From NCBI GenBank assembly GCA_027622005.1, contig JAQBZH010000022.1:1-36316 (forward strand): 36,316 nt of DNA. Reading direction: 5' to 3'. This document shows, one piece after another, positions 13,270-32,109 of the stretch. Numbering within the stretch: position 1 is the first letter of the stretch; every line of letters starts with the position of its first letter. The notes beneath the pieces were generated by a model. The model was not told the DNA's origin, did no database searches, and saw nothing but the letters and a program-made list of their open reading frames with translations. The position numbers and the translations under genes are program-made. The DNA comes from Bacteroidota bacterium. Its GTDB lineage: Bacteria; Bacteroidota; Rhodothermia; Rhodothermales; UBA10348.

Positions 13270-13758
13270 CTACTCCGCGAATTTTTTATACATGACCAAG
13301 GCATCGATATCACCTAATTGAGGGTGAGCAAAAGCTCCTTGCAACACCCCGATTGTTTCAAAGCCTAGCCTGTTCCAAAGCCGGATCGCCCCCGTGTTGG
13401 TGGAAACGACGAAGTTGAACTGCATGGCTCTAAAGCCGGCCTCAACGGCTACCTTTTGTGAATGCTCGCACATCGTTGAAGCGATTCCCCGACCCTGATA
13501 CATCTCGTCAACCACGTACCCGCAATTACAAACATGAGACCCTAGTCCCGGCTGATTGGGTTTGATAAAATACGTCCCAACGATGGTCCCCTGGAGGACG
13601 GCAACGAAGGTTTGGGATGGGGTGTCTACCCAGAAGCGGCGTGCTTCTTCCTCCGAAATATCTGGTGAAAAGACATACGTAGTACCCGCCCGAAATGCAG
13701 GTTCAAGGATGCCCCAAACGGCCGGCCAATCTTCCACCAAAAAGGGTCTTATTTCCAT
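13270..13758 (-). CDS. GNAT family N-acetyltransferase
   Basis: 162-residue cytoplasmic enzyme that transfers acetyl from acetyl-CoA to an amine. The start MEIRPFLVEDWPAVWGILEPAF is a typical GNAT N-terminus. The strand FVAVLQGTIVGTYFIKPNQ leads to motif A, YVVDEMYQGRGIASTMCEHSQ, containing the QGRGIA pyrophosphate-binding loop. The second half, MQFNFVVSTNTGAIRLWNRLGFETIG, is the usual motif B with the Asn and the LWNRLGF segment. It resembles small L-amino-acid or antibiotic acetyltransferases of the YncA/PhnO kind, but the acceptor is unknown. It stands alone by spacing. Confidence 0.92.
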   Translation of the reverse strand: MEIRPFLVEDWPAVWGILEPAFRAGTTYVFSPDISEEEARRFWVDTPSQTFVAVLQGTIVGTYFIKPNQPGLGSHVCNCGYVVDEMYQGRGIASTMCEHSQKVAVEAGFRAMQFNFVVSTNTGAIRLWNRLGFETIGVLQGAFAHPQLGDIDALVMYKKFAE

Positions 13759-25059: not shown

Positions 25060-27144
25060 TTACTTCACCGTAAACATCGTCATCATGCCGGATTCTAGAT
25101 GCTCTGCGATGTGGCAATGCATCATCCAGTCTCCGGGATTCGTGAATTCGACCACGATGTCCGCGCTCATACCGGCCGGAATCAGGACGGTATCCTTCCA
25201 GACCAGATTGTCGGTAGGGCGACCGTTGTAATCCACCACGAGGAAGCGCTGCCCGTGAAGATGAATGGGGTGCTGCATGCCGTGCATGGCATCCCGCAGG
25301 TTGTGTATGCGGATTTTGGCTGTGGATCCCACGTCGAAGTGCCAGTGGACGTCCATGTTCTCCAAACCTGTGGACGGCTCCCGGATAACCCACTCCACTT
25401 CCCGGGCGGTTGCGCTCCAGTTCATCATGGGCATGGTGCCAGACCACTCGATTGGATGGAAATAGACTTGGTCTACCTTCATCACCCAATCCACCACCGG
25501 TACAAGACCCTCCGTCCTGAGAAGCAACTCCACTTCGTGGGTCGGCTCTACGTCTATCCACTCGCGAAATGGATCCATACCTGCCATCACATCGTGTCGC
25601 ACCACGGTTGTGTTCGCCCCGGCATCTGTGGGCGGACCTTCCACCGTGATGATGGCCAGCGTATCCCGTTCCGGGAAGAAGACCCCGGTGGTATGGTTCA
25701 GCGCCTGGACATGGTTGACCAGCGCGTAAGACCCAGGATCGGAGAATGCCATTTCCACGATGTAGCGCTCGGCGGGAGCGATGGGTACGCTTTCCACCCA
25801 TGTCTCCTGCTCAAACGCACCCAGGTCGGACGCCACCAGTTTCAGCGCCATTCCGTCCACCGACAGGTTCATGGTGCGTGTATTGGCCACATTGGTCAGG
25901 AACCAACGAACAGGTTCACCGGTGCGGGCATTCAATTCGACGCGTTGTTCGCCATTAACCAGCAACACGTTGCCGAAACGCCCCATGAGGGCGTAATTGG
26001 CCTCTTCCTGACCGTAAGGGACATTATCTGTCGGGGTCAGGGTAAGGTCGTCGAACACCAGGATTTCCTCTCGGGCCGTTCCCGTAAAGAGATCGGGCGA
26101 CCGGACAAGCATGTTGCCGTAGAGTCCCAGATCCTGCTGGATGTCCTCCCGGTGGTGCGGATGATACCAGTAGATGCCCGGATCGGGAAAGTGGACGGTA
26201 TAAACAAACGATCCTCCGGGCGGGACGGGATCCTGGGTAAGACCCGGCACCCCATCAAACCGGTTGTCATGCCTCAAGCCGTGCCAATGGATGGAGCTTT
26301 CGAAGGGCGTGTCATTGATAAAGGTCACCGTGATGGTGGTTGCTTGAGGGACGTCGATCAGGGGTCCGGGAATCTGACCGTTGTAACCCAGCATGATCAA
26401 GTCGCGTCCGGCCAGCCGCTTGCGAACAAAATGCGCCCTGAGCTCGAGGGAGTCTCCGTCAGCCATGGATCGGACGGATCGGGGCGCGGCGAGGGGTACC
26501 GTCATGGTCGAGTCGGGCAACCAGGGATTGACTGAGGGCTTCAGCCCCATCATGTAGGGCATCATGTCAATACGCGGATGCATGACCGGATGCGGCCACT
26601 CCTTCGCGGACATCTTGTCGCCTTCCCCGTGCACGTGCGTCTCGGCCGATTCCGTATAAGACGCCAGCTGGAACATGTCGTGCGGTTCCATCCGACTGGA
26701 CGGCGACCGTCCACGAAGAACGAGTGATCCTTTCCGCTGCTCTCCACCCAATTCGGCTTCGCGGCTGACGATGAGCATGAACTTGTTGAAGCTGATCTCC
26801 CCGACCTCATGGTGGCCGTTGCCCACCTCACCCAAGTTGATCACCGGATCCAGAGTCAGGGTCGACGCCCACAAGACATAATGACCTTCTCCACGACCGA
26901 GCTCGGGTAATCCATCGATATCCAGCAAAAGTTCGTATCGCTGGCGGCCCTCCCGGGTCACCGTCAGACCAAAAGGCGATGACGGGCGGGCCATTTCGAC
27001 GTGACCAAGGGCACCCAGGTAATCGCGGGTGGGAAGCAGCTGAATGCAATACAGCGACAGCTCCGTGCACTCCGGAACCGACTGGGCCGATGAGGTCGGT
27101 GGGGCCCACCCAAACGTCAGTAAAATGATCAGAACCCACTTCAT
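25060..27144 (-). CDS. Multicopper oxidase with N-terminal extension
   Basis: 694 residues from ATG 27144, which yields a signal peptide (about 1-22); a longer in-frame ATG at 27306 would hide it. The cupredoxin domains occupy about 240-694 and contain all four copper-binding motifs: HWHG (286-289), YHPHH (327-331), HPIHLH (625-630) and HCHIAEHLESGM (676-687). The last includes the type 1 Cys677 and a Met687 axial ligand. The active site thus looks complete. A 200-residue region before it (about 45-200) with strand-rich YELLLDIDGLP and GHYVLWASTL, then a His/Met stretch, is unusual for the family. Substrates could be cuprous ions, metals or phenolics. Neighbours: a secreted amidohydrolase downstream and the integron end upstream. 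GC-rich. Confidence 0.93.
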   Translation of the reverse strand: MKWVLIILLTFGWAPPTSSAQSVPECTELSLYCIQLLPTRDYLGALGHVEMARPSSPFGLTVTREGRQRYELLLDIDGLPELGRGEGHYVLWASTLTLDPVINLGEVGNGHHEVGEISFNKFMLIVSREAELGGEQRKGSLVLRGRSPSSRMEPHDMFQLASYTESAETHVHGEGDKMSAKEWPHPVMHPRIDMMPYMMGLKPSVNPWLPDSTMTVPLAAPRSVRSMADGDSLELRAHFVRKRLAGRDLIMLGYNGQIPGPLIDVPQATTITVTFINDTPFESSIHWHGLRHDNRFDGVPGLTQDPVPPGGSFVYTVHFPDPGIYWYHPHHREDIQQDLGLYGNMLVRSPDLFTGTAREEILVFDDLTLTPTDNVPYGQEEANYALMGRFGNVLLVNGEQRVELNARTGEPVRWFLTNVANTRTMNLSVDGMALKLVASDLGAFEQETWVESVPIAPAERYIVEMAFSDPGSYALVNHVQALNHTTGVFFPERDTLAIITVEGPPTDAGANTTVVRHDVMAGMDPFREWIDVEPTHEVELLLRTEGLVPVVDWVMKVDQVYFHPIEWSGTMPMMNWSATAREVEWVIREPSTGLENMDVHWHFDVGSTAKIRIHNLRDAMHGMQHPIHLHGQRFLVVDYNGRPTDNLVWKDTVLIPAGMSADIVVEFTNPGDWMMHCHIAEHLESGMMTMFTVK

Positions 27145-27327
27145 GACAGCCTGCCCTCGATCTGTGCAATGGAATCCCGCAATTCGAGGGTGATTGTCGA
27201 TGCTGTGAGAAGCACCGCGATACTCTTCCTGAACTCTTTCATGATTATGTCTTTGGCTTCCACATATAGGTTGGGGGGGTTTATACAAATCCTTCGGCTT
27301 CTCCATTTACTCGCCCTCCGGGCTTTT

Positions 27328-27359
27328 CAGTCGTGCGAGTCCGCAAAATGCGCCTTTTA
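27328..27359 (-). other. Degenerate or truncated attC after the DUF3995 cassette
   Basis: On the minus strand, directly after the DUF3995 stop, the sequence continues with a copy of the R''/L'' half of the attC at 27821-27951. The 16 bases CGGACTCGCACGACTG are identical in both (27328-27343 and 27917-27932), and AAGG, GCAT and TT align before them. The RYYYAAC core is changed to GTAAAA, and no GTTRRRY partner was found in the next 150 bases toward the multicopper oxidase. It reads as a half-site left at the end of the array. Confidence 0.65.
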
Positions 27360-27815
27360 CATCCCACGCCGAGCAACCCAAACGGAAAGAATAGCAATAA
27401 TTAAGCAAAGCGGACTAAATAACGTCGTGTCTAACTCTGCAAAGTAGGTGCCTTTTACATTCTTAAAAAAACCGACGTAGCGAAAGTCACCAATACAACG
27501 AAGGAAAAACACAGTGGCGATAGCCCAACTACCCCACTTTGAAAGGTTATATACGGGATGATTAGGATCCAGATCGAGGATTAATTGGCTCCTTATAGCG
27601 ATGATCATTGCGCAAGCTAACAGCAAAGTTGCTACGACGAGCGTTGCAACGATTCCAGGACGCGAAGTACCGTCCTCATGAGACCTAAAAATGTGTTCGC
27701 CATTCTCTTTAGTAGGAAATACGCCTTTCACCCCCCTCTGCCCTCCGGCGGCCCAGTAGAAATGAAAGGCGGATAGGACTATAAAAATCGACAAAAGTAG
27801 AATTCCTATTCTCAT
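27357..27815 (-). CDS. DUF3995 membrane protein, integron cassette
   Basis: 152 residues with four hydrophobic segments (about 4-24, 52-72, 92-108 and 128-147). It matches DUF3995: an N-terminal helix with FHFYWAAGGQRGVKGVFP (the (F/H)xxWAxGG motif), a polar loop, then helices with LSKWGSWAIATVFFLRCIGDFRYVGFF and a final helix. Function is unknown. The ATG lies only 11 bases after the recombination point, so there is little room for its own promoter, and expression is likely driven from upstream (cassette promoter Pc or read-through from the toxin cassette). The TAA stop lies in the degenerate attC, as is common in cassettes. Confidence 0.9.
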   Translation of the reverse strand: MRIGILLLSIFIVLSAFHFYWAAGGQRGVKGVFPTKENGEHIFRSHEDGTSRPGIVATLVVATLLLACAMIIAIRSQLILDLDPNHPVYNLSKWGSWAIATVFFLRCIGDFRYVGFFKNVKGTYFAELDTTLFSPLCLIIAILSVWVARRGM

Positions 27816-27820
27816 TCTTA

Positions 27821-27951
27821 ATCTAACTAGAGCAGATAACGGCTGGGGGATTTACCTCGACGGTCGGCGAGCGAGCGCTCACCTTACAGAAAGTAACTGT
27901 TTCAAACCAACTCAGCCAGTCGTGCGAGTCCGTAACATGCCCTTGTTAGAC
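27821..27951 (-). other. attC recombination site between cassettes
   Basis: 131 bases. Read on the minus strand it begins with R'' GTCTAAC (27951-27945) and ends with R' GTTAGAT (27827-27821), the RYYYAAC/GTTRRRY consensus of integron attC sites. Inside, GGGCATGTTACGG near R'' is imperfectly complementary to CCGTTATCTGCTC near R', with unpaired bases as expected for the extrahelical bases of a folded bottom strand. The site starts 11 bases after the toxin stop and ends 5 bases before the DUF3995 start codon. Length lies within the known attC range. Confidence 0.8.
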
Positions 27952-27962
27952 TGCGAAAGACA

Positions 27963-28253
27963 TTATCTAGACTTCCAATGATCGGGATGCTGCCGCTGAT
28001 GCCCAACCGTCAAAATGAGGATCCGGTCAGATTCTACCCTATAAATCAAAACAAATGGGAATCGCCGAACGATTATTCTTCGATTACCATCCCCCACTTC
28101 CATACCAATATGCGGGGAGCCGGAAATCAACTCTACTGCCGCATCTACTTCCGATAAAAATGATCGAGCAAGGGTCGGTGATTGTTCAGAATAATACCTG
28201 GTTGCTGATCGAAAATCTTCAGAGGCCCATGACGAATACGTGACGTCCATCAC
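27963..28253 (-). CDS. RelE/ParE-family toxin
   Basis: 96 residues from a GTG (28253), or 95 from the ATG directly after it (28250). It matches the RelE/ParE superfamily toxins: the helix VTYSSWASEDFRSATRYYSEQSPTLARSFLSEVDAAVELI, then the strand core GMEVGDGNRRIIVRRFPFVLIYRVESDRILILTVGHQRQHPDHW, with the typical ending H(x)R(x)P. ParE members poison gyrase while RelE members cut mRNA in the ribosome; the activity here cannot be assigned. Its start overlaps the stop of the antitoxin gene (TGA within GTGATG), the standard coupled arrangement. It forms the second gene of the first cassette and is followed 11 bases later by attC. Confidence 0.9.
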   Translation of the reverse strand: MMDVTYSSWASEDFRSATRYYSEQSPTLARSFLSEVDAAVELISGSPHIGMEVGDGNRRIIVRRFPFVLIYRVESDRILILTVGHQRQHPDHWKSR

Positions 28254-28471
28254 AGGTTGAACTCTTTTCGGATTGCAGCCATCACTGATGAGGCTGAGAC
28301 AACACTGCCCTCACCATTCAAATAAGCTTGATATCTACGGTCGGCTTCTAGGATCCAAGCCTTTTCTATATCTGTTTCTTCGTCAAGGCTAGCAATCAAC
28401 CGCTCTGCGAGTTGTGCTCGTACGGAACGGGGAAGTTTTAATATTTCTGCTTCAAGATGTGCGGTCGTCAT
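28250..28471 (-). CDS. Addiction-module antitoxin
   Basis: 73 residues. It resembles the small addiction-module component family that pairs with RelE/ParE toxins: an N-terminal helix-rich region MTTAHLEAEILKLPRSVRAQLAERLIASLDEETDIEKAWILEADRR with the LxxxxRxxLAxxLIxSL pattern, and a C-terminal toxin-binding segment around YQAYLNGEGSVVSASSVMAAIRKEF. It neutralises the toxin and probably represses its own promoter, which must lie in the 80-base cassette leader upstream (28472-28550) or in the integron platform. It is the first gene of the cassette next to the presumed attI. Confidence 0.87.
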   Translation of the reverse strand: MTTAHLEAEILKLPRSVRAQLAERLIASLDEETDIEKAWILEADRRYQAYLNGEGSVVSASSVMAAIRKEFNL

Positions 28472-28885
28472 AACTCTATCTCAAAATTTGGCTTGGGGAT
28501 AGTAACGAGATCGTTCACGAATTGCTCCCAAGATTACAGAAGCAGTCTAACATGGATTATACGGCCAGACTCGCTTTCAGAATATCGCTGAAGGGCTGGC
28601 TAGCCGTACTCTTAGTCTAGTTGTTGTGATATTAACTTACAACTCTTCAAACTGCTAAATTTGGCCTTGAGGAGCTTTTTGGTTCCTGTTTTCGACATTT
28701 AATATCAACTAAGCGCCACGATCTAAATTCTAGATATTGCCCGTCTCGAAGGGCGCTTACCAATTGAAATAATTCCTGATATCAAAGTCATACTTTCGCC
28801 CAAAAAAATTGCGTGATATCACACTTTGGAAAATAGGTTATGAAATTGCAGGGGCTGCGTCTTTGTTTAAAGACTCAACACGCCC
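28472..28885. promoter_or_regulatory. Integron platform: cassette leader, putative attI, divergent promoters
   Basis: This 414-base stretch has no gene. On the minus strand GTTAGAC (28551-28545) is the likely attI/cassette junction. Toward intI there are TGATATTAA (28627-28635), its inverse TTAATATCA (28699-28707), the palindrome TGATATCA (28777-28784) and GTGATATCAC (28813-28822). A nested pair of inverted repeats is TAAGCGCC/GGCGCTTA (28710-28717, 28752-28759) enclosing ATCTA/TAGAT (28721-28735). These could be IntI or regulator binding sites. No confident -35/-10 pair or LexA box was recognised. Confidence 0.5.
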
Positions 28886-29851
28886 ATGACAACTACCCCG
28901 CGTCGGGGACAACTAGTCCGTGACATTCGAACGACCTGTCGAAGGAGAAACCTAGCCATGACTACAGAGCGACTGTACCTGAATTGGATTAAACGATTTA
29001 TTAGGTTCAATCAGACGAAACATCCCATGGCCATGGGTGCAGCAGAAGTGGCTGGGTATCTGGATCACCTGGCAACGAAACGTCACGTGGCGGCATCGAC
29101 CCAGAACCAGGCATTTAATGCTTTGGTCTTTCTGTATCGTGATGTTCTTGGGACAAACCTGACCGAATTGGATGATTTTGTGAGGGCACGGAAACCCAAA
29201 CGGCTCCCAGTTGTGCTTTCCCGTCAAGAGGTTCGCTTAGTCCTTTCTTTTATGAAAGGAACAACAGGGCTTGCCGCTCGCCTGTTGTACGGCGCTGGCC
29301 TTCGAGTGTCCGAAGCCTTGACGTTAAGAGTCAAAGACATCGACTTTGAATACGGAATCGTTAATTTACAGGCCGCAAAGGGCCAAAAAGATCGCGTAAC
29401 GGTACTTCCTGATCTACTCAAGACTCCGCTGTCCACGCATCTGGGGCGAGTCAAAGGGATTCATAACGAAGATATCGAGGCTGGATATGGCCATGTCCCA
29501 CTTCCTTATGCCTACGATCGTAAGTCGACAACGGCCGCGACTGATTGGGCCTGGCAATATGTATTTCCCAGCAGGCGGCTAACAATCAACACGTCAACCG
29601 GAGAAACCGCGCGCCATCACATTGCCAATAGTACGGTCCAAAAAGCGTTTAAATCGGCATTAAAAAACGCTGGGATTCCCAAAAAAGCGTCCTGTCATAC
29701 ACTCCGGCACAGCTTTGCAACCCACCTTCTCGAGACCGGCTCCGATATCCGAACAGTCCAGGAGTTGTTGGGACACAAAGACTTAAGAACAACTATGATC
29801 TATACACACGTATTAAATCGGGGTATTTCTGTTCGAAGTCCTCTCGACTAG
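28886..29851 (+). CDS. intI: Integron integrase (tyrosine recombinase)
   Basis: 321 residues, the usual IntI length. It recombines attC and attI sites. The N-terminal SAM-like domain (about 10-95) precedes the catalytic domain with all tyrosine-recombinase residues: Arg140 (GAGLRVSEAL), the beta-hairpin Lys (AAKGQKDR, about 165-168), His271 and Arg274 (CHTLRHSF), His297 (LLGHKD) and nucleophile Tyr306 (MIYTHVLNRG). The region at about 187-227 (HLGRVKGIHNEDIEAGYGHV through ATDWAWQYVFPS) is the extra domain diagnostic of IntI, absent from XerC/XerD. The end NRGISVRSPLD is also typical of IntI. It is transcribed divergently from the cassettes. No truncation or frameshift is seen, so it is potentially active. 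Confidence 0.95.
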   Translation: MTTTPRRGQLVRDIRTTCRRRNLAMTTERLYLNWIKRFIRFNQTKHPMAMGAAEVAGYLDHLATKRHVAASTQNQAFNALVFLYRDVLGTNLTELDDFVRARKPKRLPVVLSRQEVRLVLSFMKGTTGLAARLLYGAGLRVSEALTLRVKDIDFEYGIVNLQAAKGQKDRVTVLPDLLKTPLSTHLGRVKGIHNEDIEAGYGHVPLPYAYDRKSTTAATDWAWQYVFPSRRLTINTSTGETARHHIANSTVQKAFKSALKNAGIPKKASCHTLRHSFATHLLETGSDIRTVQELLGHKDLRTTMIYTHVLNRGISVRSPLD

Positions 29852-29895
29852 TCAAGGAAAGAGGATGTACTAACAAGGTCAGCGTCGTGAGTGAT

Positions 29896-30402
29896 TCACT
29901 TCAGTTCAGCCAGTAAATCATCCAAATCCAGCCGATAAGTCCCCATTTGCAGCTCACCATCCGCAGATCTAGGCCATTCATCTTCGGGTAAATCCCAACA
30001 CAACTCAACGCCGTTCTGATCGGGGTCGCGCAGGTACAAGGCGTGACTCACGCCGTGGTCGCTCGCCCCGTCCAGCCGGATTCCGGCGCCCTTAAGGCGG
30101 CGAAGCGCATCGGCCAATTCGCGCCGGGTTGGGTACAAAATGGCAAGGTGAAAAAGTCCGGTCGTACCCCGCGCCGGGGGATGTCCGTCTGCACTTTCCC
30201 ACGTGTTGAGTCCGATGTGGTGATGGTATCCACCTGCAGCAATAAACGCGGCACTGTCGCCCACGCGTTGTTTCAGCTCAAAACCCAGCACGCCGCAATA
30301 AAAACCTAGCGAACGGTCCAAATCCGCCACCTTTAAGTGGACGTGCCCTATTCGGACACCGGGATGGATCGGTAGGTCGCTTGCCGCAGAACGAGTACCC
30401 AT
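29896..30402 (-). CDS. VOC protein, CatE-like dioxygenase/glyoxalase
   Basis: 168 residues. First VOC repeat: IGHVHLKVADLDRSLGFYCGVLGFELKQRVGDSAAFIAAGGYHHHIGLNTW; second: GLFHLAILYPTRRELADALRRLKGAGIRLDGASDHGVSHALYLRDPDQNGVELCWD. Metal-ligand candidates are His in GHVHLKV, His in LFHLAI and Glu in GVELCW, so the iron or manganese site of the extradiol dioxygenase-like branch looks intact. The GYHHHIGLNTW strand is typical of CatE/YfiE-like proteins, presumed catechol 2,3-dioxygenases. The substrate is not determined. Its start codon directly abuts the stop of the upstream peptidase gene (no gap), suggesting co-transcription. It converges with intI, 44 bases away. Confidence 0.9.
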   Translation of the reverse strand: MGTRSAASDLPIHPGVRIGHVHLKVADLDRSLGFYCGVLGFELKQRVGDSAAFIAAGGYHHHIGLNTWESADGHPPARGTTGLFHLAILYPTRRELADALRRLKGAGIRLDGASDHGVSHALYLRDPDQNGVELCWDLPEDEWPRSADGELQMGTYRLDLDDLLAELK

Positions 30403-32109
30403 CTAGTTTCCGCGGCCTACAACACTCAAACCCTGCTCAAACACAATATCAACAGGGATGCCGGCGTCTGACAACCTATCCAGGTCCGCTTGAAGCTGCG
30501 AACCTACTTGTCCATAGGTGTCTACGAAAGCTCCAACTGCGTTGTAGTCTCCGACTCCTTGAAGCTTGAGAATCGTCTCAGAAAGTGCTGCCATGGCTAG
30601 TTCCATCTTCTCAAAATCGACCCGATACGTTCCAGAATCGGCGTCTCTCGCGAAAGCGCCCATCTCTTGGAAGAAATTAAACCGGATCATATTGGCTTTC
30701 CCGTGGGCGCTGGAAGCCCCAAATCGCACCGACCGGAAAATACCGGCCATAAATGTCACCATGTGGTCCGATGGATTGGCTTCATAGTCCTTGGAATTAA
30801 TGAGACTCAGCACCATGTAAAGCCCTAAAATGTCGGCTTTGCCTTCTTCGAGCGCTGAAGCATGTTCCTTTAAGGCTTCCCGGACGGTCCCTTTTCCGGT
30901 GATGGTGTTTTTGATTCCCAATCCGTGCGCCACTTCGTGAAACATCGTGTTACCGAAAAAGGCGTCAAAGGAAATATTTCCGCGCTGATCTTCCGCAATC
31001 AATTGATCGGCAATCGGGACAAGGATCTTATCAAATTTGGCCTGCATCGAGTTCTTAAGTTGCAGACGACGCGTTCCGCGCGATAGCTGAACTTCTTCAT
31101 CATTCGGGAGATTGATGGCTATCGTCTTTGAGCCGGCGTTCGTGTCGCCGGCGTAATAAATCACGTCGTAGGCGTTCAGGTCCGAGTCCGTACCCGGCAT
31201 TTCCTGTTTATAGGCGTCAGGAACGGGAAGACCTACTTGCAGCTGGGGTAGAAGGGCAGCGTATCTCGACAAGCGCTCACTCCAAGCCATGTCTTTGATC
31301 AACACGTAGGCCTCAGCTGCCGCTTTTTGTCCAAAAAGGGCATCTTCATACGTCTCGATAGGACCAATAACCATTTCGATCCGATTGGTTTTCATGTCCA
31401 TCCACGCAAAATCGCTGGCTTGATAGTCGGATGATAAAAGCGCATCCGCCCGAAGCGCGAGATAGTTTTTCAATCCGGGATCGTCCGCAAATTCGGCGGC
31501 GGCTCTCAAGTGAGCTGCGGCGTTTTCCATTTGCTGTCCGAACGCTTCGTGGTAAGGAATGGACTTTAACTTTTCGTCTGAATCGCGAACTACAACGGTG
31601 TATAGGTCCGCAAGGGTCGGGTCGAGAAGAACCGCCGTTTCGAATTCAGATTTGGACATATCCGCCGGATAGAGGTTGGCTCCGAATGGTTTCGGTCCAA
31701 AACCCTCGGCAAACGGAGCATTTCCGTCAATCCGATCCCACGGGCCGTAGTTGATCTTGGCAAACTCGCGAATGGCTGGATCTTCTATGGATGATAATAG
31801 AGCCTCCTTGTCACCATACGCCTGAAGCCAGAAGACCTCGTCCATTTCTGCGGCTGCCGCGAATAAATGAGGCAGCATTTTGCACTCATTTTCGCTCAAA
31901 ACGGACAGGTCCGTCGTGAGAGCAAATGACGTGTATTTAGAAAGCAGATCCCGTCCGAATCCTGAGCCTTCGGTCATGGTTACGTTGATGCTGTTCATGG
32001 TGCCTCCCTCGGCCAGATGCGTTGCGCAGTCAAAAGTAATAGTCGATTCACGGGCACAACCTGACAGAATAATGGCTGCACAGGCAACAAAAAGTGCTGT
32101 AATTCTCAT
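30403..32109 (-). CDS. M49-like zinc peptidase lipoprotein
   Basis: 568 residues from ATG 32109 (a GTG at 32118 would add three). A lipoprotein signal is present: IILSGC with Cys18. The zinc site is readable: HEVAHGLG (His391, Glu392, His395) and, after a loop, LEEGKADILGLY (Glu421/422), the third-ligand motif in the style of dipeptidyl-peptidase III (family M49), whose members use an HExxxH or HExxH site plus EE(C/G)xA(E/D). The upstream part (about 80-330) is helical with PAIREFAKINYGPWDR and YGPWDRIDGNAPF, the substrate-binding lobe of this group. It is likely a surface- or periplasm-facing oligopeptidase. It ends where the VOC gene begins. Confidence 0.88.
   Translation of the reverse strand: MRITALFVACAAIILSGCARESTITFDCATHLAEGGTMNSINVTMTEGSGFGRDLLSKYTSFALTTDLSVLSENECKMLPHLFAAAAEMDEVFWLQAYGDKEALLSSIEDPAIREFAKINYGPWDRIDGNAPFAEGFGPKPFGANLYPADMSKSEFETAVLLDPTLADLYTVVVRDSDEKLKSIPYHEAFGQQMENAAAHLRAAAEFADDPGLKNYLALRADALLSSDYQASDFAWMDMKTNRIEMVIGPIETYEDALFGQKAAAEAYVLIKDMAWSERLSRYAALLPQLQVGLPVPDAYKQEMPGTDSDLNAYDVIYYAGDTNAGSKTIAINLPNDEEVQLSRGTRRLQLKNSMQAKFDKILVPIADQLIAEDQRGNISFDAFFGNTMFHEVAHGLGIKNTITGKGTVREALKEHASALEEGKADILGLYMVLSLINSKDYEANPSDHMVTFMAGIFRSVRFGASSAHGKANMIRFNFFQEMGAFARDADSGTYRVDFEKMELAMAALSETILKLQGVGDYNAVGAFVDTYGQVGSQLQADLDRLSDAGIPVDIVFEQGLSVVGRGN

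What the first reader, a model, noticed from the sequence alone, without database searches (positions are those of the whole stretch)
27328..29851. A compact chromosomal integron in a Bacteroidota-like genome
Seen: a full-length IntI with the IntI-specific extra domain and all catalytic residues, a divergent array of two cassettes, one well-formed attC with RYYYAAC/GTTRRRY ends and a second degenerate attC sharing 16 identical bases. Established: IntI/attC platforms are known mostly from Gammaproteobacteria and a growing list of other phyla. Inference: this is a sedentary chromosomal integron of an under-sampled lineage, possibly with a distinct attC family.
Basis: partly seen in the sequence, partly recalled or inferred. 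Interest (0 to 1): 0.85.

Follow-up and report, generated by a model that had tools for sequence, protein, structure and literature searches.

The report
Chromosomal integron in a Bacteroidota genome
This is a real but small and partly decayed bacterial gene-capture device (an integron) of a known kind, sitting at the same chromosomal place in some close relatives, and its relatives carry gene cassettes whose two ends match each other over an unusually long 14 letters.

Summary
The finding holds, with corrections. The gene at 28886-29851 is an integron integrase (417 bits, cut-off 265). The attI crossover is visible: a congener agrees with the window up to G|TTA at 28551 and then differs. So one cassette is well bounded (27840-28550; antitoxin and ParE toxin). 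The second 'cassette' (DUF3995) ends in half an attC and is not shown to be mobile. Genes downstream of intI are the same in two of five congeners, so the platform looks sedentary. The integrase is in 13 of 27 family genomes; this attC type is in 24 of 27 family genomes and 0 of 87 others of the order. A complete integron was already reported in Bacteroidetes (Salinibacter ruber M1), so this is a new member of a known kind. The most interesting extra lies in the relatives: each cassette's end is complementary to its own start over up to 14 nt with a sharp edge. 9-11 nt is published; sister families here show 12. The window's own cassette shows 10.

The parts
28886..29851 (+). intI, integron integrase, 321 aa
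   Evidence: TIGR02249 416.8 bits vs cut-off 265; PF13495 + PF00589; clade with 10 family IntIs, 99/99
28551..28885 (-). attI region; crossover between 28551 (G on the minus strand) and 28550
   Evidence: Window and G023 share the 16 plus-strand bases that begin at 28551 (CATGGATTATACGGCC) and the TAA before them, and differ beyond that; G026 has the same junction with a weaker match
27840..28550 (-). Cassette 1 (711 bp), toxin-antitoxin cassette
   Evidence: start GTTAGACTGC is the exact complement of GCAGTCTAAC, which ends in the R'' box of attC1
28250..28471 (-). antitoxin, Unstab_antitox family (scanned as 28256-28471; stop read from the sequence)
   Evidence: PF09720 49.8 bits, TIGR02574 32.5 vs 31.9; 82% identical match in G024
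27963..28253 (-). ParE toxin, GTG start
   Evidence: PF05016 51.5 bits; 67% identical match in G024
27834..27951 (-). attC1: R'' GTCTAAC (27951-27945), L'' TTACGG, L' split by an insertion of 10 nt, R' GTTATCT (27840-27834)
27357..27815 (-). DUF3995 protein, possible former cassette 2
   Evidence: PF13160 108.2 bits; no intact attC found after it
27328..27359 (-). attC2 remnant, 5' half only
   Evidence: nhmmer 19.7 bits, E 9e-5; not among model matches; the start of the presumed cassette 2 matches its flank at 5 of 14 positions
28628..28824 (.). GATATC-like words between attI and intI, possible regulatory or accessory sites
   Evidence: 2 SATATC sites in the window (60 of 2000 shuffles as many), 4 each in G023, G009, G020 (0 of 2000), 0 sites in 6 of the 13 genomes looked at

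Best explanation
A sedentary chromosomal integron, nearly emptied, of a family of Bacteroidota with its own attC type. Shown by sequence: IntI, attI with a visible crossover, one bounded cassette holding a toxin-antitoxin pair, its attC, a truncated second attC, and a chromosomal neighbourhood shared with two congeners. Inferred: IntI recombines the folded bottom strand of attC with attI or another attC, inserting cassettes at 28551|28550 (established for integrons, not tested here). The toxin-antitoxin pair may keep the last cassette from being lost. In the relatives each cassette end pairs with its own start over up to 14 nt, which can form at the attC only when the cassette is a free circle; I infer that the R arm of the attC, about one recombinase footprint, is fully double-stranded in the circle and only partly so in the array, which would favour integration over excision.
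For: IntI profile and tree. attI junction in two congeners. Cassette ends. attC: 53 sites, L pair 19-102 is GC in 28, AU in 15, GU in 5; 89.2% of cells paired against 21-53% when slid; 0 of 500 shuffles reach the covariation score. Family restriction of the attC. attC sites on the divergent side of intI on the same contig in the window and in G003, G004, G005, G006, G008, G009, and as a weak match in G018; in the other five genomes with intI the contig ends 325-856 bases upstream of it. Synteny: glyoxalase, two unnamed genes, DEAD helicase and SDR in the same order downstream of intI in G026 and G023. Circle form of attC more stable than array form by 4.5 kcal/mol on average, in 20 of 26 pairs, p=0.0004.
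Against: No activity can be shown by sequence. The window has a single intact attC, so 'array' is generous. Its own cassette ends match over only 10 nt, inside the published 9-11, so the 14-nt feature belongs to relatives. Much of the attC pairing reflects conservation: shuffled 3' letters still pair in 87.4% of cells, and the two outermost R pairs fail in 14 and 27 of 53 sites. No sigma-70-type promoter was found. Within the genus G024 holds only the IntI C-terminus joined to the antitoxin and G022 has the neighbouring gene without intI. The greater stability of the circle form follows in part from the complementarity itself and is not independent evidence.
Confidence: 0.93

Rival explanations
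1. A relic (not exclusive of the best explanation): the integron is no longer active and what remains is vertically inherited debris.
For: One intact attC with an insertion, a half attC, and lone attC sites on five other contigs, three of which (C54, C15, C60) have at least one end off the family pattern; intI broken in a congener.
Against: IntI is an open full-length frame and the cassette ends are still complementary.
Confidence: 0.4
2. A Xer-type recombinase beside an unrelated palindromic repeat family.
For: The repeat is dispersed in the genome and some copies lack R boxes.
Against: XerC/XerD scores below half of their cut-offs; repeats form arrays with cassette spacing beside divergent intI in relatives; cassette-end complementarity.
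Confidence: 0.02
3. The 14-nt end complementarity is only the ordinary extension of the R stem, with no lineage-specific meaning.
For: 9-11 consecutive nt is published for most cassettes (PMC2727003, passage); loci of other phyla here show partial matching up to about position 12; control samples are small.
Against: Positions 13-14 both match in 28 of 50 family cassettes, 0 of 11 sister-family and 2 of 24 other-phylum cassettes (p 0.0005 and 0.0001); matching falls to background at position 15.
Confidence: 0.35

Closest known systems
Sedentary chromosomal integrons (Vibrio, Xanthomonas and others; recalled and from the papers)
   Same: IntI with extra domain, attI, attC with AAC/GTT ends, divergent intI, attC sites alike within a lineage, shared chromosomal place
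   Different: One intact attC here instead of a long array; family-specific attC sequence; Bacteroidota host
Complete integron of Salinibacter ruber M1 (reported in PMC9024848, passages read)
   Same: Bacteroidetes host, intI with cassettes
   Different: That record was not compared here; whether it belongs to the same order is not tested
Class 1 integron attI1/attC (compared through paper passages only)
   Same: G|TT crossover, R and L boxes, circle intermediate
   Different: No DR1/DR2-like sites were identified; GATATC-like words lie between intI and the crossover, role unknown

Membership tests
Integron | IntI: tyrosine recombinase with the IntI-specific segment | tested here: met
   TIGR02249 416.8 vs 265, profile 2-313/315
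Integron | attC: palindromic R and L boxes with AAC/GTT ends | tested here: met
   published attC model not available here
Integron | attI beside intI with crossover at G|TT | tested here: met
   junction comparison with G023, weaker with G026
Integron | Cassette as a unit with complementary ends | tested here: met
   cassette 1: 10-base exact complement, though a search allowing mismatches is not significant (130 of 300 random probes as good); not met for the presumed cassette 2
Integron | Cassette promoter Pc | tested here: inconclusive
   no sigma-70-type site; other promoter types are not covered
Integron | IntI-catalysed recombination | not testable with these tools
   needs an assay
Sedentary chromosomal integron | Fixed chromosomal locus within the lineage | tested here: met
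   same downstream genes in 2 of 5 congeners; broken in G024, not found beside the neighbouring gene in G022, unclear in G025
Sedentary chromosomal integron | Many cassettes with homogeneous attC sites | tested here: inconclusive
   window: one intact attC; own genome 6 sites on 6 contigs; other family genomes 0-19 sites
XerC/XerD | Score over the family cut-off | tested here: not met
   137.7 vs 335.15; 145.6 vs 329.6

The most novel reading that the evidence does not exclude
In this lineage the cassette carries a private 14-nt inverted end (12 nt in sister families) whose sharp edge marks a full recombinase binding arm. That arm is paired only in the free circle, so a cassette advertises its own completeness to IntI and integration is favoured over excision; the arm length has been tuned, or is copied by a fixed-length mechanism, lineage by lineage.
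Probability: 0.3. Interest if true: 0.65.

Novelty: new member of a known kind. Interest (0 to 1): 0.42.

Why it matters
It adds a family-wide integron lineage with its own attC type in Bacteroidota, a phylum not among the 11 taxa with attC models in PMC8352920 (passage). The sharply bounded cassette-end complementarity gives a sequence-only test of cassette boundaries, also for some lone cassettes far from an integrase, and a testable idea about why circles integrate.

Tried and rejected
Rfam search of 26800-30500 listed one chance-level riboswitch match and no attC family. Folding energy of single sites does not separate attC1 from shuffles. The RNAalifold consensus did not choose the R/L pairing; I counted the R/L structure as named. 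The first attempts to find control attC sites in the 80 named loci were too strict (0 clusters; 3 pairs; 6 pairs). One search found repeat arrays by eye-readable listing; one search gave 21 pairs (0 in reversed decoys) and looser sets (family 10, sister 9, named loci 19 pairs; decoys 1, 0, 1; single family sites no better than decoys, 47 vs 50). All agree in direction with the sets that I use. The first tree had wrongly chosen outgroup reading frames and is not used; in the second the outgroup rows have very long branches and one own recombinase (L001) sits on an unresolved fork at the base of the IntIs, so the Xer question rests. Trees used 11 of the 13 family IntIs; those of G005 and G006, with a stop inside, were left out. 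A search of each own-genome site's upstream side for its cassette start, mismatches allowed, is not significant for attC1 (130 of 300 random probes as good), C15, C60 and C50, but is for C49 (14 of 14 positions, 0 of 300) and C54 (12 of 14, 1 of 300). Dropped: a MITE/REP family independent of IntI.

Limits of the controls: sister-family cassettes came from 4 of 20 loci, 8 of 12 from one locus (L194), two of them the same cassette repeated; named-locus cassettes from 12 of 80 loci. One search dropped 11 of 61 family, 1 of 12 sister and 1 of 25 named-locus cassettes whose first five positions matched in fewer than four. The family search model covered a few flank bases; permuting starts between cassettes is the control for shared flanks. 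Model R1 was built on family sites, so matches inside the family are partly by construction; the zero outside is the informative part, under the tool's stricter filters.

Full report
What is there. The integrase gene at 28886-29851 (+) encodes 321 aa that match the integron-integrase model TIGR02249 at 416.8 bits (cut-off 265) over nearly its whole length; XerC and XerD models reach less than half of their cut-offs. In a tree the window's IntI is sister to that of congener G026 (73% identity), and the 11 family IntIs used, of 13, form one clade (99/99). The window carries a T9SS sorting domain (TIGR04183, 26.3 vs 23 bits), which fits Bacteroidota.

attC. A DNA search with the site gives nine matches at E<=1 in the own genome, the site itself and the attC2 remnant included, and matches in 17 of 60 relatives, all 17 in the same family. 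I aligned 75 fuller sites from fetched stretches. R'' ends in ATAAC in 41 of 75 and R' begins GTTAT in 51 of 75. On 53 sites the R/L structure has 89.2% of cells paired against 21-53% in slid controls, but 87.4% when 3' letters are shuffled; the covariation score is reached by 0 of 500 shuffles, and one L pair is GC in 28, AU in 15 and GU in 5 sites. A covariance model from these sites finds six sites in the own genome, on six contigs, and sites in 24 of 114 genomes of the order, all 24 among the 27 of this family. IntI itself is in 41 of 114 genomes of the order, 13 of them in the family. So IntI is shared across the order and this attC type is not.

attI and cassette. On the plus strand window and congener G023 share TAA followed by CATGGATTATACGGCC from 28551; on the array side of TAA they differ. 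G026 has the same junction with a weaker match. Read in array direction this is attI ...G|TTA, the canonical crossover. The window's cassette starts GTTAGACTGC, the exact complement of GCAGTCTAAC, which ends in the R'' box of attC1; a contiguous match of 10 was reached by 0 of 574 control probes from the window and 20 of 20000 random probes. The cassette (27840-28550) encodes an antitoxin and a ParE toxin. After attC1 comes a DUF3995 gene and then half an attC, so the second cassette is not demonstrated.

Place and history. In G026 and G023 the genes after intI are the same as in the window: glyoxalase, two unnamed genes, DEAD helicase, SDR. G024 has matches to the toxin-antitoxin genes joined to the last codons of intI, which I read as a deletion. 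G022 has the neighbouring gene without an integron beside it. The platform therefore looks resident in part of the genus, and broken or missing in part.

Cassette ends. In 26 neighbouring attC pairs of relatives, the bases before R'' are complementary to the start of their own cassette (6.54 of 9 at positions 6-14) and not to the start of the next one (3.15; random 2.94, 0 of 5000 as high as the own value). In 61 cassettes from 28 loci (the presumed cassette 2 of the window included, 5 of 14), positions 6-14 match in 57-80% against 24-48% when shuffled, positions 15-20 fall to 20-30%, and 15 of 61 match at all of the first 14 positions. The window's cassette 1 matches over 10. With a separate finder, 12 cassettes of sister families match up to position 12, and 25 cassettes of named loci, mostly of other phyla, fade from about position 9 (filtered counts). 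Bouvier and co-workers state that self-pairing extends to a total of 9-11 consecutive nt in most cassettes (PMC2727003, passage). So the extension is known; a 14-nt extent with a sharp edge I did not see in the listings or in the passages. Start and end of a cassette meet at the attC only in the free circle; the circle form of attC is more stable by 4.5 kcal/mol on average, in 20 of 26 pairs, less or equal in 6.

Prior knowledge. Integrons in Bacteroidota are listed in PMC8618304 (passage) and PMC9668308 (passage); PMC9024848 reports a complete one in Salinibacter ruber M1 (passage). The taxon-specific attC models of PMC8352920 cover 11 taxa, none in Bacteroidota (passage). Searches that joined integron terms with Rhodothermaeota, Rhodothermus, Bacteroidota, Bacteroidetes and Salinibacter held 0, 1, 3, 1 and 8 papers. 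I also saw passages of PMC12901181, PMC3518468 and PMC4792948 and the abstract of PMC11023631; the rest I saw as listings.

Verdict. Interest is moderate and rests on the family-specific attC and on the cassette-end pattern of its relatives.

Noticed in passing
own genome G000:C49, about 13384-13754 (L025): A lone small cassette with no integron integrase on its contig: its start GTTATACGTACCGC is complementary 14 of 14 to the bases ending its attC R''. Possibly an ectopic insertion.
   Followed up: partly
L156 8659-8978 (G024:C393): The antitoxin gene of a related toxin-antitoxin cassette runs straight into the last about 43 codons of intI; attI and the rest of intI are missing, apparently by deletion.
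   Followed up: partly
upstream of intI in G020 (L164), G009 (L163), G023 (L151); window 28628-28824: Iterated CATATCAC/GATATC-like words, in G020 with a 16-base period; in G003 CATATAGGACG words with a 21-base period, similar words in G001 and G002; none in several others. Possible accessory IntI sites or operators.
   Followed up: partly
L163 (G009:C25) and L225 (G009:C23): Two attC-rich contig ends in one genome, perhaps one long array broken in assembly.
   Followed up: no
G012:C1:644678-646323: Three attC sites in a two-contig genome with no integron integrase over the cut-off: a cluster of attC sites without intI.
   Followed up: no
L147:27, L149:54, L172:1109, L176:5746: Four sites in three genomes share the variant R'' stretch GCCTAATAGTATGG, perhaps one cassette type that spread between genera.
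   Followed up: no
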